NCBI GenBank assembly: GCA_903932385.1
Contig: CAIZGA010000209.1
Location: 1-7,667 of the forward strand
Source of the DNA: an uncultured Acidobacteriota bacterium
GTDB taxonomy: Bacteria > Acidobacteriota > Terriglobia > Terriglobales > Acidobacteriaceae
Length of the DNA stretch: 7,667 nt
Reading direction: 5' to 3'
This document shows positions 1-7,667 of this stretch, in pieces. The first letter of the stretch is position 1, and each line of letters begins with the position of its first letter. The position numbers and the translations under genes are program-made. The notes beneath the pieces were generated by a model that saw only the letters and a list, made by a program, of their open reading frames with translations, was not told where the DNA came from and ran no database searches.

Positions 1-553
1 CCCAGCCCTGCTTCATGCCGGCGATGAGATGCGGCAGCGATGCGGGGAGAAGAACGTGGAGGAAGAGTTTGACTCCGCGAGCGCCGAGGTTACGGCCGAC
101 CTGCGAGTAGATGCGCGGCATGGAGTGAATGCCGGATTCGACCGCCATGGCGATGGAGGGCGTGGCACCCATGATGATGACGAAGAGGATGGAGCTTTCG
201 CTGAGTCCGAACCAGAGCAGAGCGAGAGGCAGCCAGCAGATGCTGGGCAGGTTCTGCAGGCTGGTGAGCAGGGGCGATAGCGTGTCTGAGAAAAACTTGC
301 TGCTGGAGATGATGAGTGAGAGTACGAGTCCGAGCACGACGGAGATGACGTAGCCGATGGCGACGCGGCGCAGGCTGACCGCGATGGCGATAAAGAAACT
401 GCCGTCAGAGAAACCGGAACGCAGCGAGGCGAAGACATCACTCTGCGAGGGAAACAAGTACGGCGGCCAGACGCGAAGATGAATGACCCAGGCCCAGATA
501 CCGAGCAGCACGGCGTAGAAGATGACGTTATTTAGAACGCGGCGTATTGGCAA
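1..553 (-). CDS. ssuC: ABC transporter permease, SsuC/TauC type (3' end cut by window)
   Basis: Inner-membrane permease of a sulfonate/taurine/nitrate-type importer, forming the channel that works with the ATPase and binding protein upstream. The 184 visible residues form several hydrophobic segments (about 10-27, 53-81, 106-139). The stretch SLQNLPSICWLPLALLWFG (98-116) is typical of the SsuC/TauC/NrtB family, and the EAA coupling loop that contacts the ATPase lies at about 151-175 (GRNLGARGVKLFLHVLLPAS). About 70-90 C-terminal residues should lie beyond position 1. I chose a TTG start at 553 because GGAGG (564-560) sits 6 bases before it and the product then begins MPIRRVLNNVIFYAVLLGIW, a normal family start. 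The gene overlaps the end of the ATPase gene by 26 bases, suggesting translational coupling. A GTG further upstream in the same frame is an alternative without as good a ribosome site. The family is clear; sulfonate rather than nitrate or taurine specificity is inferred from the operon. Confidence 0.88.
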   Translation of the reverse strand, partial: MPIRRVLNNVIFYAVLLGIWAWVIHLRVWPPYLFPSQSDVFASLRSGFSDGSFFIAIAVSLRRVAIGYVISVVLGLVLSLIISSSKFFSDTLSPLLTSLQNLPSICWLPLALLWFGLSESSILFVIIMGATPSIAMAVESGIHSMPRIYSQVGRNLGARGVKLFLHVLLPASLPHLIAGMKQGW

Positions 554-1412
554 ACTCCACCTCCATGGCTTTGTTGATGTCGGCACGCAGGTGGTCGAGA
601 ATTTCGCGGGCGAGTTGGGCGACGCGGTTCTCTTCAATGTGGCGCGGACGCTGGAGCGGGATGGCGAACTCATTGATGATGGTGCCCGGGCGGAAGCTCA
701 TGAGCAGAACGCGGTCGCCGAGGCGGACCGATTCGCGGACGTTGTGGGTGACGAAGACGATGGTGCAGCCGGTCTCGCGCCAGAGGCGTTCGAGTTCGTC
801 GTGGAGCATGTCGCGGGTTTGCGCATCGAGCGCGGCGAAGGGTTCATCGAGCAGAAGGATTTTCGGTTCGGTGGCGAGGGCGCGGGCGATGGCAACGCGC
901 TGGCGCATGCCGCCGGAAAGCTGATGAATGTAGCTATCGCGAAACGATGTGAGATGCACGAGGCGCAGGTAATGGTCGGCGCGTTCGCGACGCTCTTTGC
1001 GGCCGATGCCGAGCATGCGGAGACCGAACTCAACATTTTGCCCGACGGTGAGCCAGGGAAAGAGGCCGTGCTCCTGAAAGATGAGGATGCGGTCTGTGCC
1101 GGGGCCGGTGACGCGTTCGCCGTTGAGCTGCACTTCTCCGCTGCTGGGGAAGGCGAGGCCGGCGATGAGATTGAGCAGGGAAGATTTGCCGCAGCCGGAG
1201 GGGCCGACGATGCAGAGAAATTCGCCGGGATGAATTTCAAGATTGACGTTATTGAGCGCGACCAGCGGCGGAGCATTTTTATTCGGAGAGAAACTTTGGG
1301 TGACGCCGTGCAGCGAGATGTGGGTATTGTGCGAACCGGGCGCACGACGAGCGCGGATCAGACGAATCTGTTCCTGCTGCGCGGTGAGTTCGGTCGGATT
1401 GATGGGCGTCAT
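528..1412 (-). CDS. ssuB: ABC transporter ATP-binding protein, SsuB/TauB type
   Basis: Cytoplasmic ATPase that powers the importer. All expected motifs are present in the 294-residue product: Walker A GPSGCGKSS (70-78), Q-loop Q113 in FQEHGLFPW, signature LSGGMRQR (165-172), Walker B ILLLDEP (185-191), D-loop ALD (194-196) and the switch histidine H223 in FVTHN. FQEHGLFPWLTV and the LLMSFRPG segment (237-243) are typical of the SsuB/TauB/NrtD subfamily. The N-terminus carries about 30 residues before the first beta strand (HISLHGVTQSF), longer than usual and of unknown role. Its ATG at 1412-1410 overlaps the TGA of the binding-protein gene (ATGA, 1412-1409), and AAGAAGGC lies a few bases upstream. 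It is followed by the overlapping permease gene. Substrate class is inferred from the neighbours. Confidence 0.95.
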   Translation of the reverse strand: MTPINPTELTAQQEQIRLIRARRAPGSHNTHISLHGVTQSFSPNKNAPPLVALNNVNLEIHPGEFLCIVGPSGCGKSSLLNLIAGLAFPSSGEVQLNGERVTGPGTDRILIFQEHGLFPWLTVGQNVEFGLRMLGIGRKERRERADHYLRLVHLTSFRDSYIHQLSGGMRQRVAIARALATEPKILLLDEPFAALDAQTRDMLHDELERLWRETGCTIVFVTHNVRESVRLGDRVLLMSFRPGTIINEFAIPLQRPRHIEENRVAQLAREILDHLRADINKAMEVEFANTPRSK

Positions 1413-2458
1413 TGAATTGCCTTCTTATGTTTTTCAACCAGCACCTGATTGAGCAGGGTGAGGTCGTAGAGGTTGCTGAGGTTCGGCACGGACTTTACAG
1501 AGCCGGCGTCGTAGGACTCCTGCGCGGACCGGAAGAGGGTGGCACGCAGCGGGTCATAAGTGGGCGTGAGGCGCGACCATGCTTCATTAATGATAGCGGG
1601 TGCGAGCGCTTTGCCGGTATCGGATTTAATTTGCGCGTTCAGCAGGGACTTGGCCTGGTCGGGATGGGCGAGGATCCAGTCGGTGAGATCGACGTGGGCG
1701 CGCAGGAAAGCCTTGACGATATCCGGATGCTGCTGCAGAAACTGGGTGCGGACAATAACGTGCGCGGAGACGAACTGGCCGTTGGGCCAGAGAGTGCGCT
1801 CATCGAGAAAGAGATGGCCCTGGCCCTGATGGATGAGGCGAGTGGCCCAGGGTTCGGGCGCCCAGGCTGCATCGAGAATATTGCGTTCGAAGAGCAGCAC
1901 CTGTTCAGGATTGGGCATGGGATAGACTTCGACGTCGCCACCTTTGTCGCGGGTCTTGAGTCCCTGCGAGTGGAGCCAGTAGCGGAGGGCGACGTCCTGC
2001 GTGTTGCCGAGTTGCGGGCTGGCGACGCGCTTGCCGTGGAAGTCTGCCGCAGTGTGGATGTTGGCGCCGTTGCGGACGATGAGCGCCGCGCCGCCACTGC
2101 AGGCACCGGCGATGACGCGAAGAGCTTCTCCGCGAGACTGAACGTAGCCGTTGATGGTGGGGCTGGGGCCGATATAGGTGATGTCGACTGCGTTGGCGAA
2201 GATGGCTTCGACGGCGGAGGGGCCGGCATTGAATTGCTGCCACTGAATGCGAACGCCCGGGCCGAGTGCGCGCTCGAATGCGCCTTGCGCGCGGCCGACG
2301 AGCGCCTGCGGATGCGAGACGTTGGGGAAGTATCCGATACGAACGGTTTGCTGCGCGTGGAGCGGCAGAGCGAGCGCGATGAAAAACAGAACCGCCCCGG
2401 CCAGCAGCGACCGGGGAGTTCTGCGAATGCTACAGCGAATTGGTTGCGATGAGTCCAT
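1409..2458 (-). CDS. ssuA: Periplasmic substrate-binding protein, aliphatic-sulfonate (SsuA) family
   Basis: Periplasmic solute-binding protein that would deliver the substrate to the permease. The 349 residues start with a signal peptide (hydrophobic core about 18-33, likely cleavage after LPLHA at 35). The mature part follows the SsuA/TauA/NitT pattern: TVRIGYFPNVSHPQALVGRA (38-57), the ligand-loop segment YIGPSPTINGY (95-105), ASPQLGNTQDVALR (146-159), WAPEPWATRL (199-208), and a C-terminal helical region with AHVDLTDWI. These match the sulfonate-binding branch better than nitrate binders, though the true ligand cannot be read from sequence. The mature chain has one Cys and one Met, consistent with sulfur sparing. 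The ATG at 2458 has AGGAA 5 bases upstream and begins 12 bases after the receptor stop codon, so it is almost certainly cotranscribed with it. The stop overlaps the ATPase start. Confidence 0.93.
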   Translation of the reverse strand: MDSSQPIRCSIRRTPRSLLAGAVLFFIALALPLHAQQTVRIGYFPNVSHPQALVGRAQGAFERALGPGVRIQWQQFNAGPSAVEAIFANAVDITYIGPSPTINGYVQSRGEALRVIAGACSGGAALIVRNGANIHTAADFHGKRVASPQLGNTQDVALRYWLHSQGLKTRDKGGDVEVYPMPNPEQVLLFERNILDAAWAPEPWATRLIHQGQGHLFLDERTLWPNGQFVSAHVIVRTQFLQQHPDIVKAFLRAHVDLTDWILAHPDQAKSLLNAQIKSDTGKALAPAIINEAWSRLTPTYDPLRATLFRSAQESYDAGSVKSVPNLSNLYDLTLLNQVLVEKHKKAIQ

Positions 2459-2470
2459 TACTGTTCCTGA

Positions 2471-5400
2471 TTAGAACAAAATCTTCGCGCCGAATTGAAT
2501 CTGGCGGGAAGTGGTTGCTGTTGCAGTGATGACGCCAGCGGTGGGCGACAGCGTATTGGCGGCTGTGTAGACCACGGGATTGGGCGTGTTGAAGTTGGCA
2601 TGGTTGAAGATGTTGAAGAACTCCGCGCGCAATTGCAGGCGAAGCTGCTGGTGGATGATGGTGGTCCGGGTCAGCGAAGAATCCAACTCGCTGAGCAGCG
2701 GGCCTTGTAGAGAATCGCGACCTGCATTGCCAAGTTGACCTGTTGTCGGGGTGAGAAACGCGTTGGGATTGAAGTACTCGCCGACCGTCTTAGGATATAG
2801 GTTGCCCGTGAAGGACGGGTTGAGATTCGGGCGGACGGGATTGCGAGAGTCACCACTGCCGGTGGGGTTGTAACCGAGCTGCGGAGTGAAGGGAAATCCA
2901 CTCTGCTCGGTAAGGATGCCGCTGACGGTCCAGCCGCTGACGATGTCGCGGACCAAGGGCGAAGTACGCGCGAGGTAGGTGCGGCCATCGCCGAAGGGAA
3001 GGTCGTAGGTGCCGTTGACGGCGGCGATGTGACGCATGTCGGTGGCCGAGGGGCCCCAGTCGAGCTTGGCGTTGCCGGGATAGGAAACGAAGGCCGGCGT
3101 GTTGCCGCTGACGCTGGTGTTCCACGCGGAACCATCATCGAGCGATTTGGAGTAGGTGTAGACGCCGCGGAATTGCAGGCCGTGCGAGAAGCTGCGACGC
3201 ACATCCACCTGTAGGCCGCTGTAGAAGCTGTTGCCCTGCGAGACCCAGGTGGTGGTGTTGGCGACGGCTGGGTTGGCGTCATGGGAGCCGGAAGTGAATT
3301 CGATGCCGCCGTAGCAAGTGGTGCAGGCAACCGGGACCGGCTCATTTAAATCTTCAGAAAGAATTTGATGGTAGCCGTGGTAGCCGACGTAGCCGACGGA
3401 GAGCAAGGTGTTGGGCGCAATCTGCTGCTCGATTTTCAGAGTCCAGTCGACGATGGCGGGAGTGGCGATGTCCGGCTGCACGCCGCTGGGTGAGATGGTG
3501 CCGACGGCAGAGCTGCCCGGCGCGATGACAAGGCTGGAGACGGGAACCGACTTCTGCACCGAGGTGGTGTTGTAGGGCGCGGTCTGGTCGAGGCGATAGT
3601 CGAGCGTATCGAGCAACGCGTGATAGACGCCGACGCTGGCGTGGACGGCAGTGTGGCCGTTGCCGAATGGGTCCCACGCGAGGCTGAGGCGCGGGTTGGG
3701 AAGAAATTTTGCGCGATTGACGGCGAGTGCGGAATTGCCGACGGTGGGGGTGGTTTGAATGACGCCGTTGGTGAAGAGGTAATTCGAGGCGCGGTTGTGG
3801 GACTCATTCCAACCGTTGGTGGATTCGAAGCGGAAGCCGGCACGGAGTTCGAGGTGCGGGGTGACGTGCAGCGTGTCCTGCACGAAGCCGGCGCCTTCAG
3901 TGGAACGCCAGCCGAGCGCGGTGGGTGCGGGGACGACGGTGAAGGTGGCAACGGTTCCCTGCAGGAATGTGGTGAGGGTGCTGAAGGAGGCCTGACCGTA
4001 CTGGTTCTGGGCGAGATTGTCATTGGACTGAATGCGCTGCGCCCAGCCACCGGCTTCAATCTGTTGGCGGCCATGCGACCAGTAGAAGTGATCGTCGTAG
4101 GTGAAGAGGTTGCGGGCGACGGCGTTGTTGCTGCCGGTGTTTGCTCCGGCACCGGTGATGGTGGAGGCACCGTTGGAGGCCGTGCTGCCGCTGATGACGA
4201 TCGCGCCGATGGTATCTCCGGTGACCCAGCCGGGAACGCTGACCGGAACCAGGCCGGTGAAGTAATAGCTGGCGCGGGAGTATCCGAAGCGAGCGGTGTT
4301 CAGCAGATTGGCGGAGAAGAGATGCTGCTCCTGAACGCTGGCGACCTGCTCGCGAAGATTTTCTTCGACGAGGCTGAGCGGGTTGGCGCTGGGGGTGTGG
4401 GCGACACTGTCGTCTACGGTGTAGACGCCGAAGAGCAGATCGCGGTCGCTGAGGTTGTCGTCAAAGCGCGTGGTGCCGAAGTCTTCGCGGATGTGCTGCG
4501 GCGGATTGCTGTAGGCGTAGGCGATGCCGCTGGCAAGACCACCGGCGGTGGTGAGCTCGGCACCGTTCTGCACGGGCCAGAGATTGAGCAGCGGAGCGAC
4601 GGAAGGATTAACGCCGACATAGACTTCGTTACCGCTGGAGTTGGGAACGTATCCCTGACGCGCTTCATTGTCGGGAACGAGAGTGACGTCGCTGAGGCCG
4701 AGGTTCTGGCGATAGCCTTCATAGTTGCCGAAGAGGAAGAGCTTGTCTTTGCGGATGGGACCGCCGAGCGAGCCGCCGAAGACATTGCGTTGGAACTCGG
4801 GGATGCGGGCCTGATCAAAATAATTGCGGGCATCGAGGGCGCTGTTGCGGAGGAATTCGTAGAGCGCGCCGTGGACCTGATTGGACCCCGATGCGGTGAT
4901 GATGCTGACCTGCGCGCCTTCACGCTTGCCGTACTCCGCACCGTAGCCGTCGGAAGCGACGTTGAATTCGCGGACGGCATCGACACCGAGGAGCTGGCCG
5001 CTGGTGCCGCCGGGGGTGACATTGATGAGCGAGGCGCCGGTGTATTCCACACCGTTGAGCAGGAAGAGATTGTCCTGCGGACGATGGCCGGCGATGGAGA
5101 ACATGTTGCCGACCGAGGAGTTGGAGGTGCCGATGCTGCCGGAACGCTGCGCAGTGTAATTGACCACGGCAGGGTTGAGCAGAATGAGCTGGTCATAGCT
5201 GCGGCCGTTAAGCGGCAACTCCTTCACTTGACGCTCATCGACCAGGCCGGAGACCTGCTGGGTGCCGAGGTTGACGGCGCGCGGAGTTGCCTGCACAACG
5301 ACATGCTGCTCCACCGTGCCGATGGAGAGAACGAAGTTGATGGTGGTGGTTTGACCGACGACGAGGCTGATGCCGCTTTGGGTCTGGGTGTTGAAACCGT

Positions 5401-5677
5401 CGCGGGAAACGGTGATTTGATATTGACCGACGGGAACCGAAGGCGCGGAGTAGCGGCCATCGGCGGCGGTCAAAAGTTTGCGTTGGTTGCCGGTTTCAAG
5501 ATTGCGGATGTTGACCGCTGCGCCGCTGACGACTGCGCCGGTGGAGTCTGTGACGGAACCGGAGATGCTGCCGCCGACAATCTGGGCGTGGAGCGGGGAT
5601 CGCAGGAAGACGCTGAGAAAGGCGATGAGAACGATGGCGCGCGAGGCACCAAGAAAAATGCGGGCAAAAATACGCAC
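2471..5677 (-). CDS. TonB-dependent-receptor-like outer-membrane protein with carboxypeptidase-regulatory-like domain
   Basis: Large outer-membrane beta-barrel protein of 1068 residues, of the kind abundant in acidobacteria (Oar/SusC-like). Residues 1-31 are a signal peptide ending LHA. Residues about 36-118 form a carboxypeptidase-regulatory-like beta-sandwich (GSISGSVTDSTGAVV ... FVLSIG). A TonB-box-like VEQHVVVQA lies at 122-130, a plug-like region follows (LPLNGRSYDQLILLNPAV ... FSIAGHRPQDNLFLLNGVEY ... GYGAEYGKREGAQVSIITASG, to about 265), and the rest is barrel, ending in the outer-membrane sorting pattern QFGAKILF with a terminal Phe. I chose GTG at 5677 because AAGGAGAT (5691-5684) lies 6 bases upstream and the signal peptide begins there; an upstream in-frame GTG at 5863 would put poor sequence before the signal peptide and run through the leader ORF. 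The protein has only two Cys (785, 788, as CTTC) and two internal Met. Operon position suggests it imports or binds the sulfur compound carried by the downstream ABC transporter; that is inference. Confidence 0.93.
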   Translation of the reverse strand: MRIFARIFLGASRAIVLIAFLSVFLRSPLHAQIVGGSISGSVTDSTGAVVSGAAVNIRNLETGNQRKLLTAADGRYSAPSVPVGQYQITVSRDGFNTQTQSGISLVVGQTTTINFVLSIGTVEQHVVVQATPRAVNLGTQQVSGLVDERQVKELPLNGRSYDQLILLNPAVVNYTAQRSGSIGTSNSSVGNMFSIAGHRPQDNLFLLNGVEYTGASLINVTPGGTSGQLLGVDAVREFNVASDGYGAEYGKREGAQVSIITASGSNQVHGALYEFLRNSALDARNYFDQARIPEFQRNVFGGSLGGPIRKDKLFLFGNYEGYRQNLGLSDVTLVPDNEARQGYVPNSSGNEVYVGVNPSVAPLLNLWPVQNGAELTTAGGLASGIAYAYSNPPQHIREDFGTTRFDDNLSDRDLLFGVYTVDDSVAHTPSANPLSLVEENLREQVASVQEQHLFSANLLNTARFGYSRASYYFTGLVPVSVPGWVTGDTIGAIVISGSTASNGASTITGAGANTGSNNAVARNLFTYDDHFYWSHGRQQIEAGGWAQRIQSNDNLAQNQYGQASFSTLTTFLQGTVATFTVVPAPTALGWRSTEGAGFVQDTLHVTPHLELRAGFRFESTNGWNESHNRASNYLFTNGVIQTTPTVGNSALAVNRAKFLPNPRLSLAWDPFGNGHTAVHASVGVYHALLDTLDYRLDQTAPYNTTSVQKSVPVSSLVIAPGSSAVGTISPSGVQPDIATPAIVDWTLKIEQQIAPNTLLSVGYVGYHGYHQILSEDLNEPVPVACTTCYGGIEFTSGSHDANPAVANTTTWVSQGNSFYSGLQVDVRRSFSHGLQFRGVYTYSKSLDDGSAWNTSVSGNTPAFVSYPGNAKLDWGPSATDMRHIAAVNGTYDLPFGDGRTYLARTSPLVRDIVSGWTVSGILTEQSGFPFTPQLGYNPTGSGDSRNPVRPNLNPSFTGNLYPKTVGEYFNPNAFLTPTTGQLGNAGRDSLQGPLLSELDSSLTRTTIIHQQLRLQLRAEFFNIFNHANFNTPNPVVYTAANTLSPTAGVITATATTSRQIQFGAKILF

Positions 5678-5683
5678 TGGGAA

Positions 5684-5691
5684 ATCTCCTT
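5684..5691 (-). promoter_or_regulatory. Ribosome-binding site of the receptor gene (SD3)
   Basis: AAGGAGAT, a near-perfect Shine-Dalgarno sequence, ends 6 bases before the GTG start at 5677 and decides that start. With the preceding C (5692) it is the exact complement of AUCUCCUUG inside leader ORF 2 (5820-5812), so it can be hidden by base pairing. Confidence 0.9.
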
Positions 5692-5695
5692 GAAG

Positions 5696-5715
5696 GCCGC
5701 GGTGTGTGCCACGGC
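5696..5715 (-). promoter_or_regulatory. RNA hairpin just upstream of SD3
   Basis: In the transcript GCCGUGG (5715-5709) pairs with CCGCGGC (5702-5696) through 7 base pairs, one of them G-U, around the loop CACACA. It ends 3 bases before CAAGGAGAU. No U-run follows, so it is not an intrinsic terminator. It may stack on, or bring together, the anti-SD/SD helix. The pairing is seen; the role is inferred. Confidence 0.55.
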
Positions 5716-5789
5716 GAGGGCTGGGTGGTGTGGGATACAAGCCAGCGACTGCTTGCGCTGTGCTGCGTGTTGATGGGGTGATGGAACTA

Positions 5790-5900
5790 TCAACAACAAC
5801 AACAGCGACAACAAGGAGATGTATGGGGTGCAAATGCGGAGGAGCGCGCTGCTGCAACAGCACGGGGTGAAGAGAGTTTTGTTTTAAGAGATGCAGTCAT
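5790..5900 (-). CDS. Leader peptide 2, ending in poly-cysteine (CCRCCCC)
   Basis: A 36-residue ORF starting at ATG 5900 with AGGAA (5912-5908) 7 bases upstream. It begins MTASLKTKLSSPRAV, has no recognisable domain, and ends SPCCRCCCC before TGA. Six of its last seven residues are Cys, all encoded by TGT. Such a run at the end of a short ORF upstream of sulfur-uptake genes is the hallmark of a cysteine-sensing attenuation leader, where the peptide itself matters less than ribosome stalling. The Cys codons lie at 5813-5808 and 5804-5793. The sequence AUCUCCUUG (5820-5812) ends inside the first of them and is the exact complement of the receptor ribosome site 112 bases downstream of the stop. 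A ribosome waiting at the Cys codons would cover it. The ORF could be read from further upstream in the same frame, but the ribosome site favours ATG 5900. Confidence 0.8.
   Translation of the reverse strand: MTASLKTKLSSPRAVAAARSSAFAPHTSPCCRCCCC
5812..5820 (-). promoter_or_regulatory. Anti-Shine-Dalgarno 2 within leader ORF 2
   Basis: AUCUCCUUG pairs perfectly over 9 bases with CAAGGAGAU (5692-5684), the receptor gene's ribosome site. It spans the codons just before and into the first Cys codon of leader 2, so a ribosome stalled on the Cys codons would mask it, while a ribosome that has terminated and left would free it to close the receptor start. Confidence 0.75.
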
Positions 5901-5904
5901 TCGT

Positions 5905-5914
5905 TTGTTCCTGT
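5905..5914 (-). promoter_or_regulatory. Ribosome-binding region of leader 2 (SD2)
   Basis: ACAGGAACAA contains AGGAA (5912-5908), 7 bases before ATG 5900. All ten bases are the exact complement of UUGUUCCUGU in leader ORF 1 (6013-6004), so this start too can be closed by base pairing. Confidence 0.75.
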
Positions 5915-5915
5915 G

Positions 5916-5940
5916 GCGTACGCAGGGAAATGCGTCGCGC
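5916..5940 (-). promoter_or_regulatory. RNA hairpin just upstream of SD2
   Basis: ACGCA (5935-5931) pairs with UGCGU (5924-5920) around a six-base loop UUUCCC; an outer GCG (5940-5938) can pair with CGC (5918-5916) across a small internal loop. It ends one base before the ACAGGAACAA region. The placement mirrors the hairpin before SD3. The stem is short, so its stability is uncertain. Confidence 0.4.
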
Positions 5941-5991
5941 GGTATCTGCTTGAAGTTGTTTGGGAAATACGCAGAGGGTTGCGGGCCGCGA

Positions 5992-6045
5992 TTAGCAGCA
6001 GCAACAGGAACAACAACACATGCGGAATGAAGAGGTGAACGACAT
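5992..6045 (-). CDS. Leader peptide 1, poly-cysteine, probably leaderless
   Basis: A 17-codon ORF encoding MSFTSSFRMCCCSCCCC and ending TAA. Seven of the last eight residues are Cys (four TGT, three TGC), interrupted by one Ser codon TCC. There is no Shine-Dalgarno sequence before ATG 6045, but the predicted transcription start is about 4 bases upstream, which fits leaderless initiation; an in-frame ATG at 6021, directly before the Cys run, is an alternative start. The Ser codon and flanking Cys codons form UUGUUCCUGU (6013-6004), the exact complement of the leader 2 ribosome region. Polycysteine leaderless short ORFs acting as cysteine-responsive attenuators have been described in mycobacteria, so the principle has precedent, but I know of no tandem form. 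That the ORF is translated is inferred. Confidence 0.78.
   Translation of the reverse strand: MSFTSSFRMCCCSCCCC
6004..6013 (-). promoter_or_regulatory. Anti-Shine-Dalgarno 1 within leader ORF 1
   Basis: UUGUUCCUGU pairs perfectly over 10 bases with ACAGGAACAA (5914-5905) in front of leader 2. It lies wholly inside the Cys codon run. The single non-Cys codon (TCC, Ser) supplies the CC that pairs with the GG of the AGGAA ribosome site, which explains why the Cys run is interrupted. Confidence 0.72.
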
Positions 6046-6048
6046 GTA

Positions 6049-6084
6049 TGAATCAAGAATAAATTTTGGGCCTGCGTGTGTCAA
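6049..6084 (-). promoter_or_regulatory. Sigma70-type promoter of the sulfur-uptake operon
   Basis: A perfect -35 box TTGACA (6084-6079), a 17-base spacer and a -10 box TATTCT (6061-6056, 4 of 6 consensus) point towards the leader ORFs. A start 7 bases after the -10 box would fall at about 6049 (an A), leaving about 4 bases before ATG 6045. The -35 box lies inside the hairpin that follows the propeller gene. Confidence 0.75.
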
Positions 6085-6113
6085 CCGATGAAGGGTTGAA
6101 CGGCAGGCCCAAA
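6065..6113 (-). terminator. Probable terminator of the propeller gene, overlapping the operon promoter
   Basis: TTTGGGCCTGC (6113-6103) and GCAGGCCCAAA (6075-6065) form a perfect 11-base-pair stem. Inside it TCAACC (6099-6094) pairs with GGTTGA (6086-6081) to form a second 6-base-pair stem with a seven-base loop. It begins 32 bases after the propeller stop codon and is followed by ATTTATTCTT, which is only moderately U-rich, so termination may be partial. Confidence 0.6.
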
Positions 6114-6145: not shown

Positions 6146-7180
6146 TTACTTGCCGATTTCGATGATGGAGAAGGAGCCGGGGATCATGGGGCCGCGACGG
6201 GTGAAGGGCGATGGCGTTGCTCCGGGTGCGGGAGTGGGCGCCGGGCCGTAGAGGCTGGTCATGGTGAAGATGTGCCCGGTCTTGGCATCGAGGGTGATGG
6301 TGCGTGCGCCGGCGGGGGTGGTGACGACCTGCTCAACGGCGAAGCTGGTGGGCGAGCTTTCTTTCACGACGGTGAGGGTGCTGTCGCCGGCGGTGGCGAA
6401 GGCTTCGCCGGTGGCGGGATTGAAGGCCGCTCCGTCGACGCCGCGGCCGATGGGCAGTGTGGTGATGATGGTGCCATCGGTGTGGAGGATGACGAAGACC
6501 TGCGGTGTGCGGCAGGCGGCGAAAAGGATGCCGTTGGAGGCATCGAGGGCGAGACCGGCGCAACCGTCACCCTTGCCGGCGAGCGAGAGTGTGGTGATGA
6601 GTGAGAGTTTGGCAGTATCGACAACGGCGATGGAGCCTTTGTCTTCGAGGTCTATATATAGATGACCCTTGCCGTCGAGCTGAGCCTGCTCGGGCGCTCC
6701 GCCGAGGTCGATGGTGCCAACGATGGAGCCGTCTTTCGCGTTGATGACGGTGACGTTGGGAGCGCGGTGGCTGAGGATGTAAATGTGGCCGGTGGCGGGG
6801 TCGCCGAGAATGCCGTCGGGTGAGCCGGTGACGGCGATGGTCTTGATGGCCTTGATGGTGGTGGTATCAAACATGAGCACGGGGTTGCTGGAAGCGAAGC
6901 CGTGGCCGGAGGCGGTATCGACGGCAACGCCGTGTGCATTGGAGCCGGGGGTTTCACCGAGCGGCGCGAGCGTATCGAGGGAGTAGACGGTGATGCGGCC
7001 GGTGGGGCCGGAGCGCGGGATGTAGAGCTTGCGGCCAGCGGCATCGGCAAAGACGTAATCGAAACCACCATCGCCGCCGACTTTGGGCTGGGCGATGATT
7101 TTGTAGGGGCCGGATTGGGCGTGTGCGGCGAGCGTGAGAGCGAATGAGAGTGCAAGAACAGTGACGAGAATGCGGCGCAT
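6146..7180 (-). CDS. Secreted seven-bladed beta-propeller protein (YVTN/YncE-like)
   Basis: A 344-residue exported protein. It starts MRRILVTVLALSFALTLAAHA, a signal peptide probably cut after residue 21. The rest contains about seven copies of a short repeat of the form D-x2-(T/S)-G-x-(I/L)-(Y/F)-x(2-3), for example FADAAGRKLYIPR, VDTASGHGFAS, GDPATGHIYILS, LDASNGILFAA, FNPATGEAFATA and LDAKTGHIFTM, which is the pattern of YVTN/NHL-type beta-propellers. A Pro/Ala-rich stretch (GPAPTPAPGATPSP) lies near the C-terminus. No catalytic residues can be recognised, and the substrate or partner is unknown. The ATG at 7180 is preceded by GGAG with a 6-base gap; an upstream extension of the same frame precedes the signal peptide and is not credible. 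It is separated from the sulfur operon by a hairpin, so I see no functional link. Confidence 0.85.
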   Translation of the reverse strand: MRRILVTVLALSFALTLAAHAQSGPYKIIAQPKVGGDGGFDYVFADAAGRKLYIPRSGPTGRITVYSLDTLAPLGETPGSNAHGVAVDTASGHGFASSNPVLMFDTTTIKAIKTIAVTGSPDGILGDPATGHIYILSHRAPNVTVINAKDGSIVGTIDLGGAPEQAQLDGKGHLYIDLEDKGSIAVVDTAKLSLITTLSLAGKGDGCAGLALDASNGILFAACRTPQVFVILHTDGTIITTLPIGRGVDGAAFNPATGEAFATAGDSTLTVVKESSPTSFAVEQVVTTPAGARTITLDAKTGHIFTMTSLYGPAPTPAPGATPSPFTRRGPMIPGSFSIIEIGK

Positions 7181-7328: not shown

Positions 7329-7667
7329 TCAGACGTAGAGATTGTGGGTGCGGATGTAGTCGGCGACGGCGGGCGGGAGTTGGGACTCGGCTTGGGTGCG
7401 GGCGGCGGCACCGGCGCGGATGCCTTCGCGAATCTGCGTGGAGGAAATGTCTACATGGACGGCGTCGAAGAGATAGAGGCGGGTGGAGAATTTTTCTCCG
7501 ACGCAGTCGAAGGCGCTGAGGTCGCGGTCAGTGAGCGGAGTGATATCGCAGGGCGGCAGGGCGTGGCGGATTTCATCGAGTGCGAGGGTGAAGCCGGGAC
7601 GGCCGGCGATAATCCAATGGGCCTGGCCGAGGAGACGCACGGGACGGTGCCAGCGGTCGAGTGCGCG
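7329..7667 (-). CDS. nadD: Nicotinate-nucleotide adenylyltransferase, C-terminal part (5' end cut by window)
   Basis: The frame is open to the window edge, giving 112 C-terminal residues. NadD transfers AMP to nicotinate mononucleotide in NAD synthesis, in the cytoplasm. The visible part has family hallmarks: RWHRPVRLLGQAHWIIAGRPGF (typical position: a WHR...L...A....V..RPG pattern), then VDISSTQIREGI, the ISST-x-IR motif that binds nucleotide, and the C-terminal LPPAVADYIRTHNLYV. The catalytic N-terminal half with the GxFDPxHxGH motif would lie beyond 7667. A GTG in this frame at 7640 is internal to the domain and is not a start, since homology-like sequence continues upstream of it. No link to the sulfur operon. 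Confidence 0.9.
   Translation of the reverse strand, partial: RALDRWHRPVRLLGQAHWIIAGRPGFTLALDEIRHALPPCDITPLTDRDLSAFDCVGEKFSTRLYLFDAVHVDISSTQIREGIRAGAAARTQAESQLPPAVADYIRTHNLYV

What the first reader, a model, noticed from the sequence alone, without database searches (positions are those of the whole stretch)
5677..6045. Tandem poly-cysteine leader ORFs forming a two-stage translational cysteine switch
Seen: two short ORFs ending in CCCSCCCC and CCRCCCC lie in series before a sulfur-uptake operon; each carries, within or abutting its Cys codons, a perfect complement of the next cistron's ribosome site (10 and 9 bases). Inference: stalling at leader 1 opens leader 2, stalling at leader 2 opens the receptor gene, and ample cysteine closes both. 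Because leader 2 must be initiated before it can stall, the stages act in series (AND logic), giving low leak and a sharp response. Single polycysteine leaders with cysteine-responsive attenuation are known in mycobacteria; a cascaded pair in an acidobacterium-like genome looks undescribed to me.
Basis: partly seen in the sequence, partly recalled or inferred. Interest (0 to 1): 0.95.

Follow-up and report, generated by a model that had tools for sequence, protein, structure and literature searches.

The report
Two cysteine-sensing leaders in series
In a probable acidobacterium, two short cysteine-rich reading frames sit one after the other in front of a predicted sulfur-uptake operon; they likely act as a two-step sensor that would switch the operon on only when cysteine runs short, and the same kind of pair recurs in front of the matching receptor gene in many related genomes.

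Summary
On the minus strand, leader 1 (MSFTSSFRMCCCSCCCC*, 6045-5992) and leader 2 (…CCRCCCC*, 5900-5790) precede a TonB-type receptor gene (start 5677) and Ssu-like transporter genes. The 10- and 9-base complements to the next ribosome site are present and lie in predicted minimum-energy folds (z -3.5 and -5.8). Conservation is strong: of 107 receptor loci (window included), 73 have a Cys-rich short ORF at the leader-2 position (1.6 in shuffles), and 48 have a tandem pair by a looser rule. Cys stands out among amino acids, and leader 2 uses the codon TGT that the receptor gene avoids. Neighbouring CysD and YeiH genes carry such leaders too. In the 57 loci with a leader 1, 28 have an intrinsic terminator after it, with a covarying antiterminator in one clade; long ribosome-site pairing is rare, and a short anti-SD beside leader 2's Cys codons is only about twofold enriched. 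Best reading: an Acidobacteriaceae cysteine attenuation network whose receptor operon often carries two Cys sensors in series, with an output that differs between lineages. No experiment was run. New variant of a known kind.

The parts
6056..6084 (-). predicted sigma-70-type promoter (TTGACA, 17, TATTCT); -10 ends 10 nt before the leader 1 ATG, so the transcript would begin about 3 nt before it
5992..6045 (-). leader 1 ORF, MSFTSSFRMCCCSCCCC*
5995..6018 (-). leader 1 Cys run (CCCSCCCC)
   Evidence: sequence
6004..6013 (-). 10-base complement of leader 2's ribosome site, inside the Cys run
5905..5914 (-). leader 2 SD region (ACAGGAACAA)
5790..5900 (-). leader 2 ORF, 36 codons ending CCRCCCC*
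5793..5813 (-). leader 2 terminal Cys run (CCRCCCC)
   Evidence: sequence
5812..5820 (-). 9-base complement of the receptor's ribosome site, ending 2 nt into the Cys run
5691..5789 (-). C-rich, G-poor spacer between leader 2 and the receptor SD (C 0.44, G 0.19 over 98 nt)
5684..5692 (-). receptor SD region (CAAGGAGAT)
2471..5677 (-). Oar-like TonB-type outer-membrane receptor gene, GTG start (signal peptide and SD)
1409..2458 (-). SsuA-family sulfonate-binding protein gene
528..1412 (-). ABC transporter ATPase gene, SsuB-like by position and family
   Evidence: no specific model over its cut-off among those shown
2..673 (-). ABC transporter permease gene, SsuC-like by position and family, runs off the window
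   Evidence: no specific model over its cut-off

Best explanation
Two Cys-rich short ORFs in series, a kind of pair that recurs in front of orthologous receptor genes, likely act as successive cysteine-tRNA sensors of one attenuator that would turn on a predicted sulfur-uptake operon when cysteine is scarce. Inferred mechanism in this window: transcription starts just before leader 1. With ample Cys-tRNA the ribosome clears leader 1, whose Cys codons then pair with leader 2's SD and keep leader 2 closed; the stretch next to leader 2's Cys codons pairs with the receptor SD and keeps the receptor closed. With scarce Cys-tRNA, stalling in leader 1 opens leader 2, and stalling in leader 2 opens the receptor SD. 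Shown by calls: the ORFs, the complements, the predicted folds, the conservation and the sulfur neighbourhood. Predicted: stalling, response to cysteine, series logic. In relatives the same two sensors are often kept, but stage 1 often acts on an intrinsic terminator, and stage 2 may act by SD occlusion, by Rho on the C-rich spacer, or both.
For: Cys-rich sORF at leader-2 position 73 of 107 loci (shuffles 1.6, reverse strand 8), leader-1 position 41 (2.4, 0), both 31 (0.1, 0). A looser rule gives tandem 48, leader 2 only 29, leader 1 only 14, none 16 of 107; in 15 of the 29 'leader 2 only' loci a Cys leader precedes the upstream yeiH gene (my tally of the list). Cys is by far the most enriched residue: 71 vs 2.0, next Leu 26 vs 15.0 and Arg 23 vs 12.8. 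Cys codons in leader 2: TGT 245, TGC 41; receptor genes 4 and 139; other ORFs 486 and 1845. Promoter scoring 9 or more of 12 before leader 1 in 25 of 57 (1.7% in shuffles), its -10 ending 6-10 nt from the ATG in 24 of those 25. Sulfur gene families (CysN, CysD, CysH, TauE, YeiH; named from one member of each cluster) in 66 of 107 stretches; 28 of 32 CysD genes have a Cys leader. Window folds and opening costs. Own-SD 5-mer complements within 30 nt 5' of leader 2's Cys run: 22 of 73 vs 9.9 shuffled; spacer windows 17 of 143 vs 20.7. Terminator after leader 1: 28 of 57 vs 0.8 shuffled.
Against: The window's long pairings are not conserved. Mean gain in receptor-SD opening by a modelled stall is small across the family (0.25-0.35 kcal/mol; above 1 kcal in 14 or 17 of 73 vs 7 and 9 of 73 for two control masks). 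In the window model a ribosome on leader 1's stop codon, or up to six codons before leader 2's Cys run, opens the next SD as well, and with leader 2's last Cys codon in the A site the receptor SD is closed (7.6 kcal/mol), so the model is not sharply tied to every Cys codon. The synonymous null for stage 1 is only about 2% because Cys-codon runs are repetitive. The loci are related, so they are not independent events. 16 of 107 loci show no leader by the rule used. The window's genus has only this one genome here. No expression data.
Confidence: 0.7

Rival explanations
1. Leader 2 works by Rho-dependent attenuation, as in tnaC: after leader 2 is finished, Rho would load on the C-rich, G-poor spacer and end the transcript, unless a ribosome stalled on the terminal Cys codons covers the site. 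SD pairing in the window would be secondary or accidental.
For: Spacer C>G in 73 of 73 loci and C at least 2G in 53 of 73, against 38 of 561 stretches upstream of other ORFs and 20 of 283 intergenic 98-nt stretches. Intrinsic terminator between leader 2 and receptor in only 1 of 64. Rho over the cut-off in 16 of 16 relatives searched. Rho was proposed for mycobacterial Cys leaders (PMC1262725, passages).
Against: No Rho over the cut-off in the window's own assembly, which is 76.7% complete. SD complements are enriched beside the Cys run. The window has a strong SD-sequestering fold.
Confidence: 0.35
2. Stage 1 in the window is a relic of a transcription attenuator that has lost its terminator, and only leader 2 regulates.
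For: A terminator follows leader 1 in 28 of 57 loci, none in the window. 29 of 107 loci have only leader 2 directly upstream, though 15 of these have a Cys leader before yeiH.
Against: Leader 1 keeps seven Cys codons, a promoter match and a 10-bp SD2 match; the fold z is -3.5.
Confidence: 0.15
3. The short ORFs encode functional Cys-rich peptides (metal- or thiol-binding) and are not sensors.
For: Conserved Cys-rich C-terminal ends.
Against: By eye, N-terminal parts, lengths and spacing vary freely; strong TGT bias; in one clade terminator and antiterminator are coupled to leader 1 codons.
Confidence: 0.05
4. Chance open frames in repetitive TGT/CAA sequence (poly-Gln read on the other strand).
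For: Strict pattern hits elsewhere in 150 genomes look like antisense Gln runs or other non-leader frames.
Against: 107-locus conservation against shuffles and reverse strand.
Confidence: 0.02

Closest known systems
Polycysteine leaderless short ORFs of mycobacteria (Canestrari et al. 2020; paper not held; seen through citations and review passages, PMC9031893 and PMC13236596, otherwise recalled)
   Same: Leaderless or nearly leaderless short ORF with contiguous Cys codons before sulfur genes; stalled ribosome thought to free a ribosome site; several sulfur operons carry one
   Different: Here two leaders lie in series before one operon, in what looks like another phylum, before an outer-membrane receptor; stage 1 has an intrinsic terminator in many relatives
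Classical ribosome-mediated transcription attenuation (trp type; Cys form: uORFC-8-2 motif before cysS in Rhodobacterales, PMC8632094, passages)
   Same: Cys codons, a hairpin over them, antiterminator and terminator in the leader 1 of one clade of relatives
   Different: No terminator in the window; a second Cys leader follows
Tandem attenuators of Salmonella mgtCBR (PMC3641672, abstract and section list)
   Same: Two short ORFs in series in one leader mRNA
   Different: mgtM and mgtP answer different signals (ATP, proline) and add independently; here both are Cys-rich
ermB control by two leader peptides (PMC8274638, abstract and section list)
   Same: Two leader peptides needed for translational attenuation
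   Different: Drug-induced stalling, no amino-acid sensing
tnaC (E. coli), Rho-dependent attenuation (recalled; cited in PMC1262725)
   Same: Stall near the leader stop codon next to a Rho-loading region
   Different: Tryptophan-induced arrest peptide, not starvation for a codon's tRNA

Membership tests
Cys-responsive polycysteine leader attenuator (mycobacterial type) | short ORF with a run of Cys codons before sulfur genes | tested here: met
Cys-responsive polycysteine leader attenuator (mycobacterial type) | leaderless or near-leaderless start | tested here: inconclusive
   agrees by promoter prediction only: -10 ends 10 nt before the ATG in the window, 6-10 nt in 24 of 25 scoring loci out of 57; no transcript start mapped
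Cys-responsive polycysteine leader attenuator (mycobacterial type) | structure that sequesters the next ribosome site and is opened by a stall | tested here: inconclusive
   predicted in the window, not conserved as long pairing, weak family signal
Cys-responsive polycysteine leader attenuator (mycobacterial type) | expression responds to cysteine | not testable with these tools
   needs a reporter
Classical transcription attenuator | intrinsic terminator after the leader | tested here: not met
   not in the window; elsewhere 28 of 57 loci with a leader 1 and 21 of 23 yeiH leaders
Classical transcription attenuator | mutually exclusive antiterminator | tested here: inconclusive
   window has no terminator; in a 14-sequence clade the antiterminator, which I drew by eye on that alignment, pairs in 91.1% of cells with 6 two-sided changes (0 of 500 shuffles reach either), spread over 2 pairs (111 of 500 reach that); over 32 loci of all types the match (5.03) lies within the range of 200 swaps (mean 4.67, max 5.28) though above 100 shuffles (max 4.91)
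Tandem attenuators (mgtCBR type) | two short ORFs in series in one leader | tested here: met
   window and 47 other loci of 107; attenuation itself untested
Tandem attenuators (mgtCBR type) | two different signals | tested here: not met
   both leaders are Cys-rich
Rho-dependent attenuator | C-rich, G-poor region after the leader | tested here: met
Rho-dependent attenuator | Rho-dependence | not testable with these tools
   needs bicyclomycin or in vitro termination
Any Rfam RNA family | covariance match at the gathering score | tested here: not met
   no match in the window or 14 relatives

The most novel reading that the evidence does not exclude
Acidobacteriaceae run a cysteine 'ribosome regulon' in which the sulfur-receptor operon carries two Cys sensors in series, an AND gate for low leak and a steep response; evolution has kept the two sensors while swapping the output of the first one between a transcription terminator and occlusion of the second leader's ribosome site.
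Probability: 0.4. Interest if true: 0.85.

Novelty: new variant of a known kind. Interest (0 to 1): 0.74.

Why it matters
Amino-acid attenuators are usually described as single leaders. Two leaders that read the same amino acid in series, conserved across genera, would make a natural cascaded attenuator in which gain and leak can be measured by recoding one leader at a time. It would also give Acidobacteriota a ribosome-based cysteine network, and hand over dozens of natural variants in which sensor and output have been recombined.

Tried and rejected
Strict Cys pattern in 150 relatives: 26 genomes hit; the 7 non-window loci with a true stop look, by eye, like antisense Gln runs or other non-leader frames. 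The pattern was too strict: relatives often end in CCCR. SsuA orthologs as anchors: 41 of 200 family genomes match, the window's included. In the 40 regions fetched (of 42 other hits listed) there is no receptor hit at E 1e-10 and no Cys-rich short frame within 600 nt upstream of SsuA, though 5 regions have 7 such frames farther off. SsuA was found beside the receptor only in the window among 117 stretches, some cut by contig ends. So the leaders follow the receptor, not SsuABC. Antiterminator matching over all 32 L1-terminator loci was only slightly above the swap control; it is clear only in single clades. My first antiterminator structure was one column out of register and was recounted. 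General conservation of SD pairing was rejected. Of 117 loci (window and 116 orthologs) 10 had no receptor start called and were dropped before all counts out of 107. Counts of leader 1 differ by rule: ATG only, 57 loci; ATG/GTG/TTG, 62. Some leaders may be missed or spurious at these thresholds. Outside the family, 8 of 20 receptor relatives showed a Cys-rich short ORF upstream, with no receptor start called in 12 of the 20.
Full report
Observation. The operon downstream, all on the minus strand, is an Oar-like outer-membrane receptor, an SsuA-family binding protein (over the curated cut-off), an ABC ATPase and an ABC permease (general families only). A promoter match, TTGACA-17-TATTCT, ends 10 nt before leader 1's ATG, so leader 1 would be almost leaderless. 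The receptor's likely start is GTG 5677, not the longest frame from 5863, because an SD and a signal peptide fit there. That the genome is acidobacterial is inferred from source names of the receptor's homologs, such as Terracidiphilus and Acidobacteriaceae.

The RNA in the window. Folding leader 1 to leader 2's start gives -45.2 kcal/mol, z -3.52; leader 2's end to the receptor start gives -60.8, z -5.79; 0 of 200 shuffles are as good in either. Both minimum-energy folds contain the SD pairings. Modelled ribosomes on leader 1's Cys run cut the opening cost of leader 2's SD from 7.24 to 0.7-2.5 kcal/mol; one on the stop codon also does (1.72), while masks 15-45 nt beyond the stop do not (8.5-11.7). 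For the receptor SD the effect is smaller: 6.2 to about 4.3, or 7.7 to 4.3/3.6 in another fragment. It is not specific to the Cys run, since positions up to six codons earlier do the same, and with the last Cys codon in the A site the cost is 7.6. No intrinsic terminator was found. By chance alone the pairings are unlikely but not extreme, since Cys-codon runs are repetitive: 2.1% and 1.1% of synonymous recodings match as well.

Conservation. SsuA orthologs were a false anchor: in the 40 regions fetched they stand without the receptor and without a Cys-rich short frame within 600 nt. Receptor orthologs (116 of the listed hits, 56-72% identity, from a search of 398 family genomes of which 147 matched) told the story. 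With a start called in 107 of 117 loci (window included), a short ORF with at least 3 Cys in its last 10 residues ends at the leader-2 position in 73 (shuffled 1.6, reverse strand 8), at the leader-1 position in 41 (2.4, 0), at both in 31 (0.1, 0). A looser rule gives 48 tandem, 29 leader 2 only, 14 leader 1 only, 16 none, with tandem pairs in 11 of the 16 genera in the count. Cys is by far the most enriched residue: 71 vs 2.0, next Leu 26 vs 15.0 and Arg 23 vs 12.8. Leader 2 uses TGT 245 times and TGC 41 times, the receptor genes 4 and 139, other ORFs 486 and 1845. These loci are related, so the counts are not independent events.

Sulfur context. CysN, CysD, CysH, TauE or YeiH families (named from one member of each cluster) lie in 66 of 107 stretches. 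Of 32 CysD genes, 28 have their own Cys leader (in two the called CysD start overlaps it). Of 25 yeiH genes upstream of a receptor on the same strand, 23 have a Cys leader before yeiH, and 21 of those 23 leaders are followed by an intrinsic terminator. In 15 of these loci a leader 2 also lies between yeiH and the receptor (my tally), so 63 of 107 receptor units would carry two Cys leaders, direct or split, if yeiH and receptor share a transcript.

How the outputs differ. After leader 1 a strong intrinsic terminator stands in 28 of 57 loci (shuffled 0.8; the window is a miss), its T run 55-106 nt past the stop; between leader 2 and the receptor in 1 of 64 (shuffled 0.6). In a 14-sequence clade the hairpin over the Cys codons plus the terminator pair in 95.3% of cells with 6 two-sided changes (0 of 500 shuffles reach either). 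The alternative antiterminator, made by leader 1's last codons and the terminator's 5' arm and drawn by eye on that alignment, pairs in 91.1% of cells, also with 6 two-sided changes (0 of 500; slid registers 33-46%), though these fall on only 2 pairs (111 of 500 shuffles reach 2). Some other loci show long single matches, e.g. 9 bp in L170, but over all 32 loci together the match (5.03) is within the range of 200 swaps (mean 4.67, max 5.28) and above 100 shuffles (max 4.91). For leader 2, 5-mer complements of the locus's own SD are enriched within 30 nt 5' of the Cys run (22 of 73 vs 9.9), where a stalled ribosome would sit, and not in the spacer (17 of 143 vs 20.7). Yet modelled stalls free the receptor SD by more than 1 kcal/mol in only 14 or 17 of 73 loci, control masks 7 and 9. 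The spacer after leader 2 is C-rich and G-poor (C at least 2G in 53 of 73; controls 38 of 561 and 20 of 283) and Rho is present in 16 of 16 relatives searched, so Rho is a real rival for stage 2.

Reading. The sensor pair is the conserved thing; the output is not. In many relatives stage 1 looks like a transcription attenuator. The series logic follows from the layout and is untested.

Compared with what is known. Single Cys leaders before cys operons were described in Actinobacteria in 2005 with Rho suggested (PMC1262725, passages), and reported as cysteine-responsive in M. smegmatis (Canestrari 2020; paper not held; seen through PMC9031893 and PMC13236596 passages). A Cys uORF with a terminator precedes cysS in Rhodobacterales (PMC8632094, passages). 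Tandem attenuators are known in mgtCBR but read two different signals (PMC3641672, abstract); ermB needs two leader peptides (PMC8274638, abstract). Passages of PMC4974804 and PMC10219788 and a reference in PMC9094748 added nothing closer. My searches in the open-licence library listed no paper whose title or abstract start deals with Cys leaders in Acidobacteria or with two leaders in series for the same amino acid; several of those lists were capped, and subscription journals are mostly absent from the library. No Rfam family matches the window or 14 relatives, and no NCBIfam model matches three leader peptides at E 0.001.

Noticed in passing
L203, L227, L251, L150 and others, upstream of CysD: Single Cys-rich leaders such as MRISCQLRCCCPFNVEQACRLTR precede 28 of 32 CysD genes next to the receptor loci; 9 of the 28 are followed by an intrinsic terminator.
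   Followed up: partly
L163-L180, L228, L233, L240, L248 upstream of yeiH: 23 of 25 YeiH-type exporter genes carry a Cys leader (e.g. MGLMHIAACTCCLCC...), 21 of the 23 followed by an intrinsic terminator.
   Followed up: partly
window 6066-6112, strand -: An inverted repeat TTGGGCCTGC...GCAGGCCCAA, perhaps the end signal of the beta-propeller gene 6146-7180, overlaps the predicted leader promoter (sequence).
   Followed up: no
window 1-5677: The receptor joined to SsuABC-like genes is found only in the window among 117 receptor stretches searched; in 40 SsuA regions fetched elsewhere no such receptor was hit.
   Followed up: partly
leader 2 of 73 loci: Strong preference for TGT as Cys codon (245 to 41), which the receptor gene avoids (4 to 139); why TGT is kept is unexplained.
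   Followed up: no
G000: No Rho over the family cut-off in the window's assembly, 76.7% complete, though 16 of 16 relatives searched have it; probably incompleteness.
   Followed up: partly
L281, L283, L284, L285, L287, L288: Cys-rich short ORFs (e.g. ending SRCCCRP, ALSCCCC) before receptor relatives in other families of the class.
   Followed up: no
window 7329-7667, strand -: End of a NadD-like nicotinate-nucleotide adenylyltransferase gene, below the curated cut-offs.
   Followed up: no
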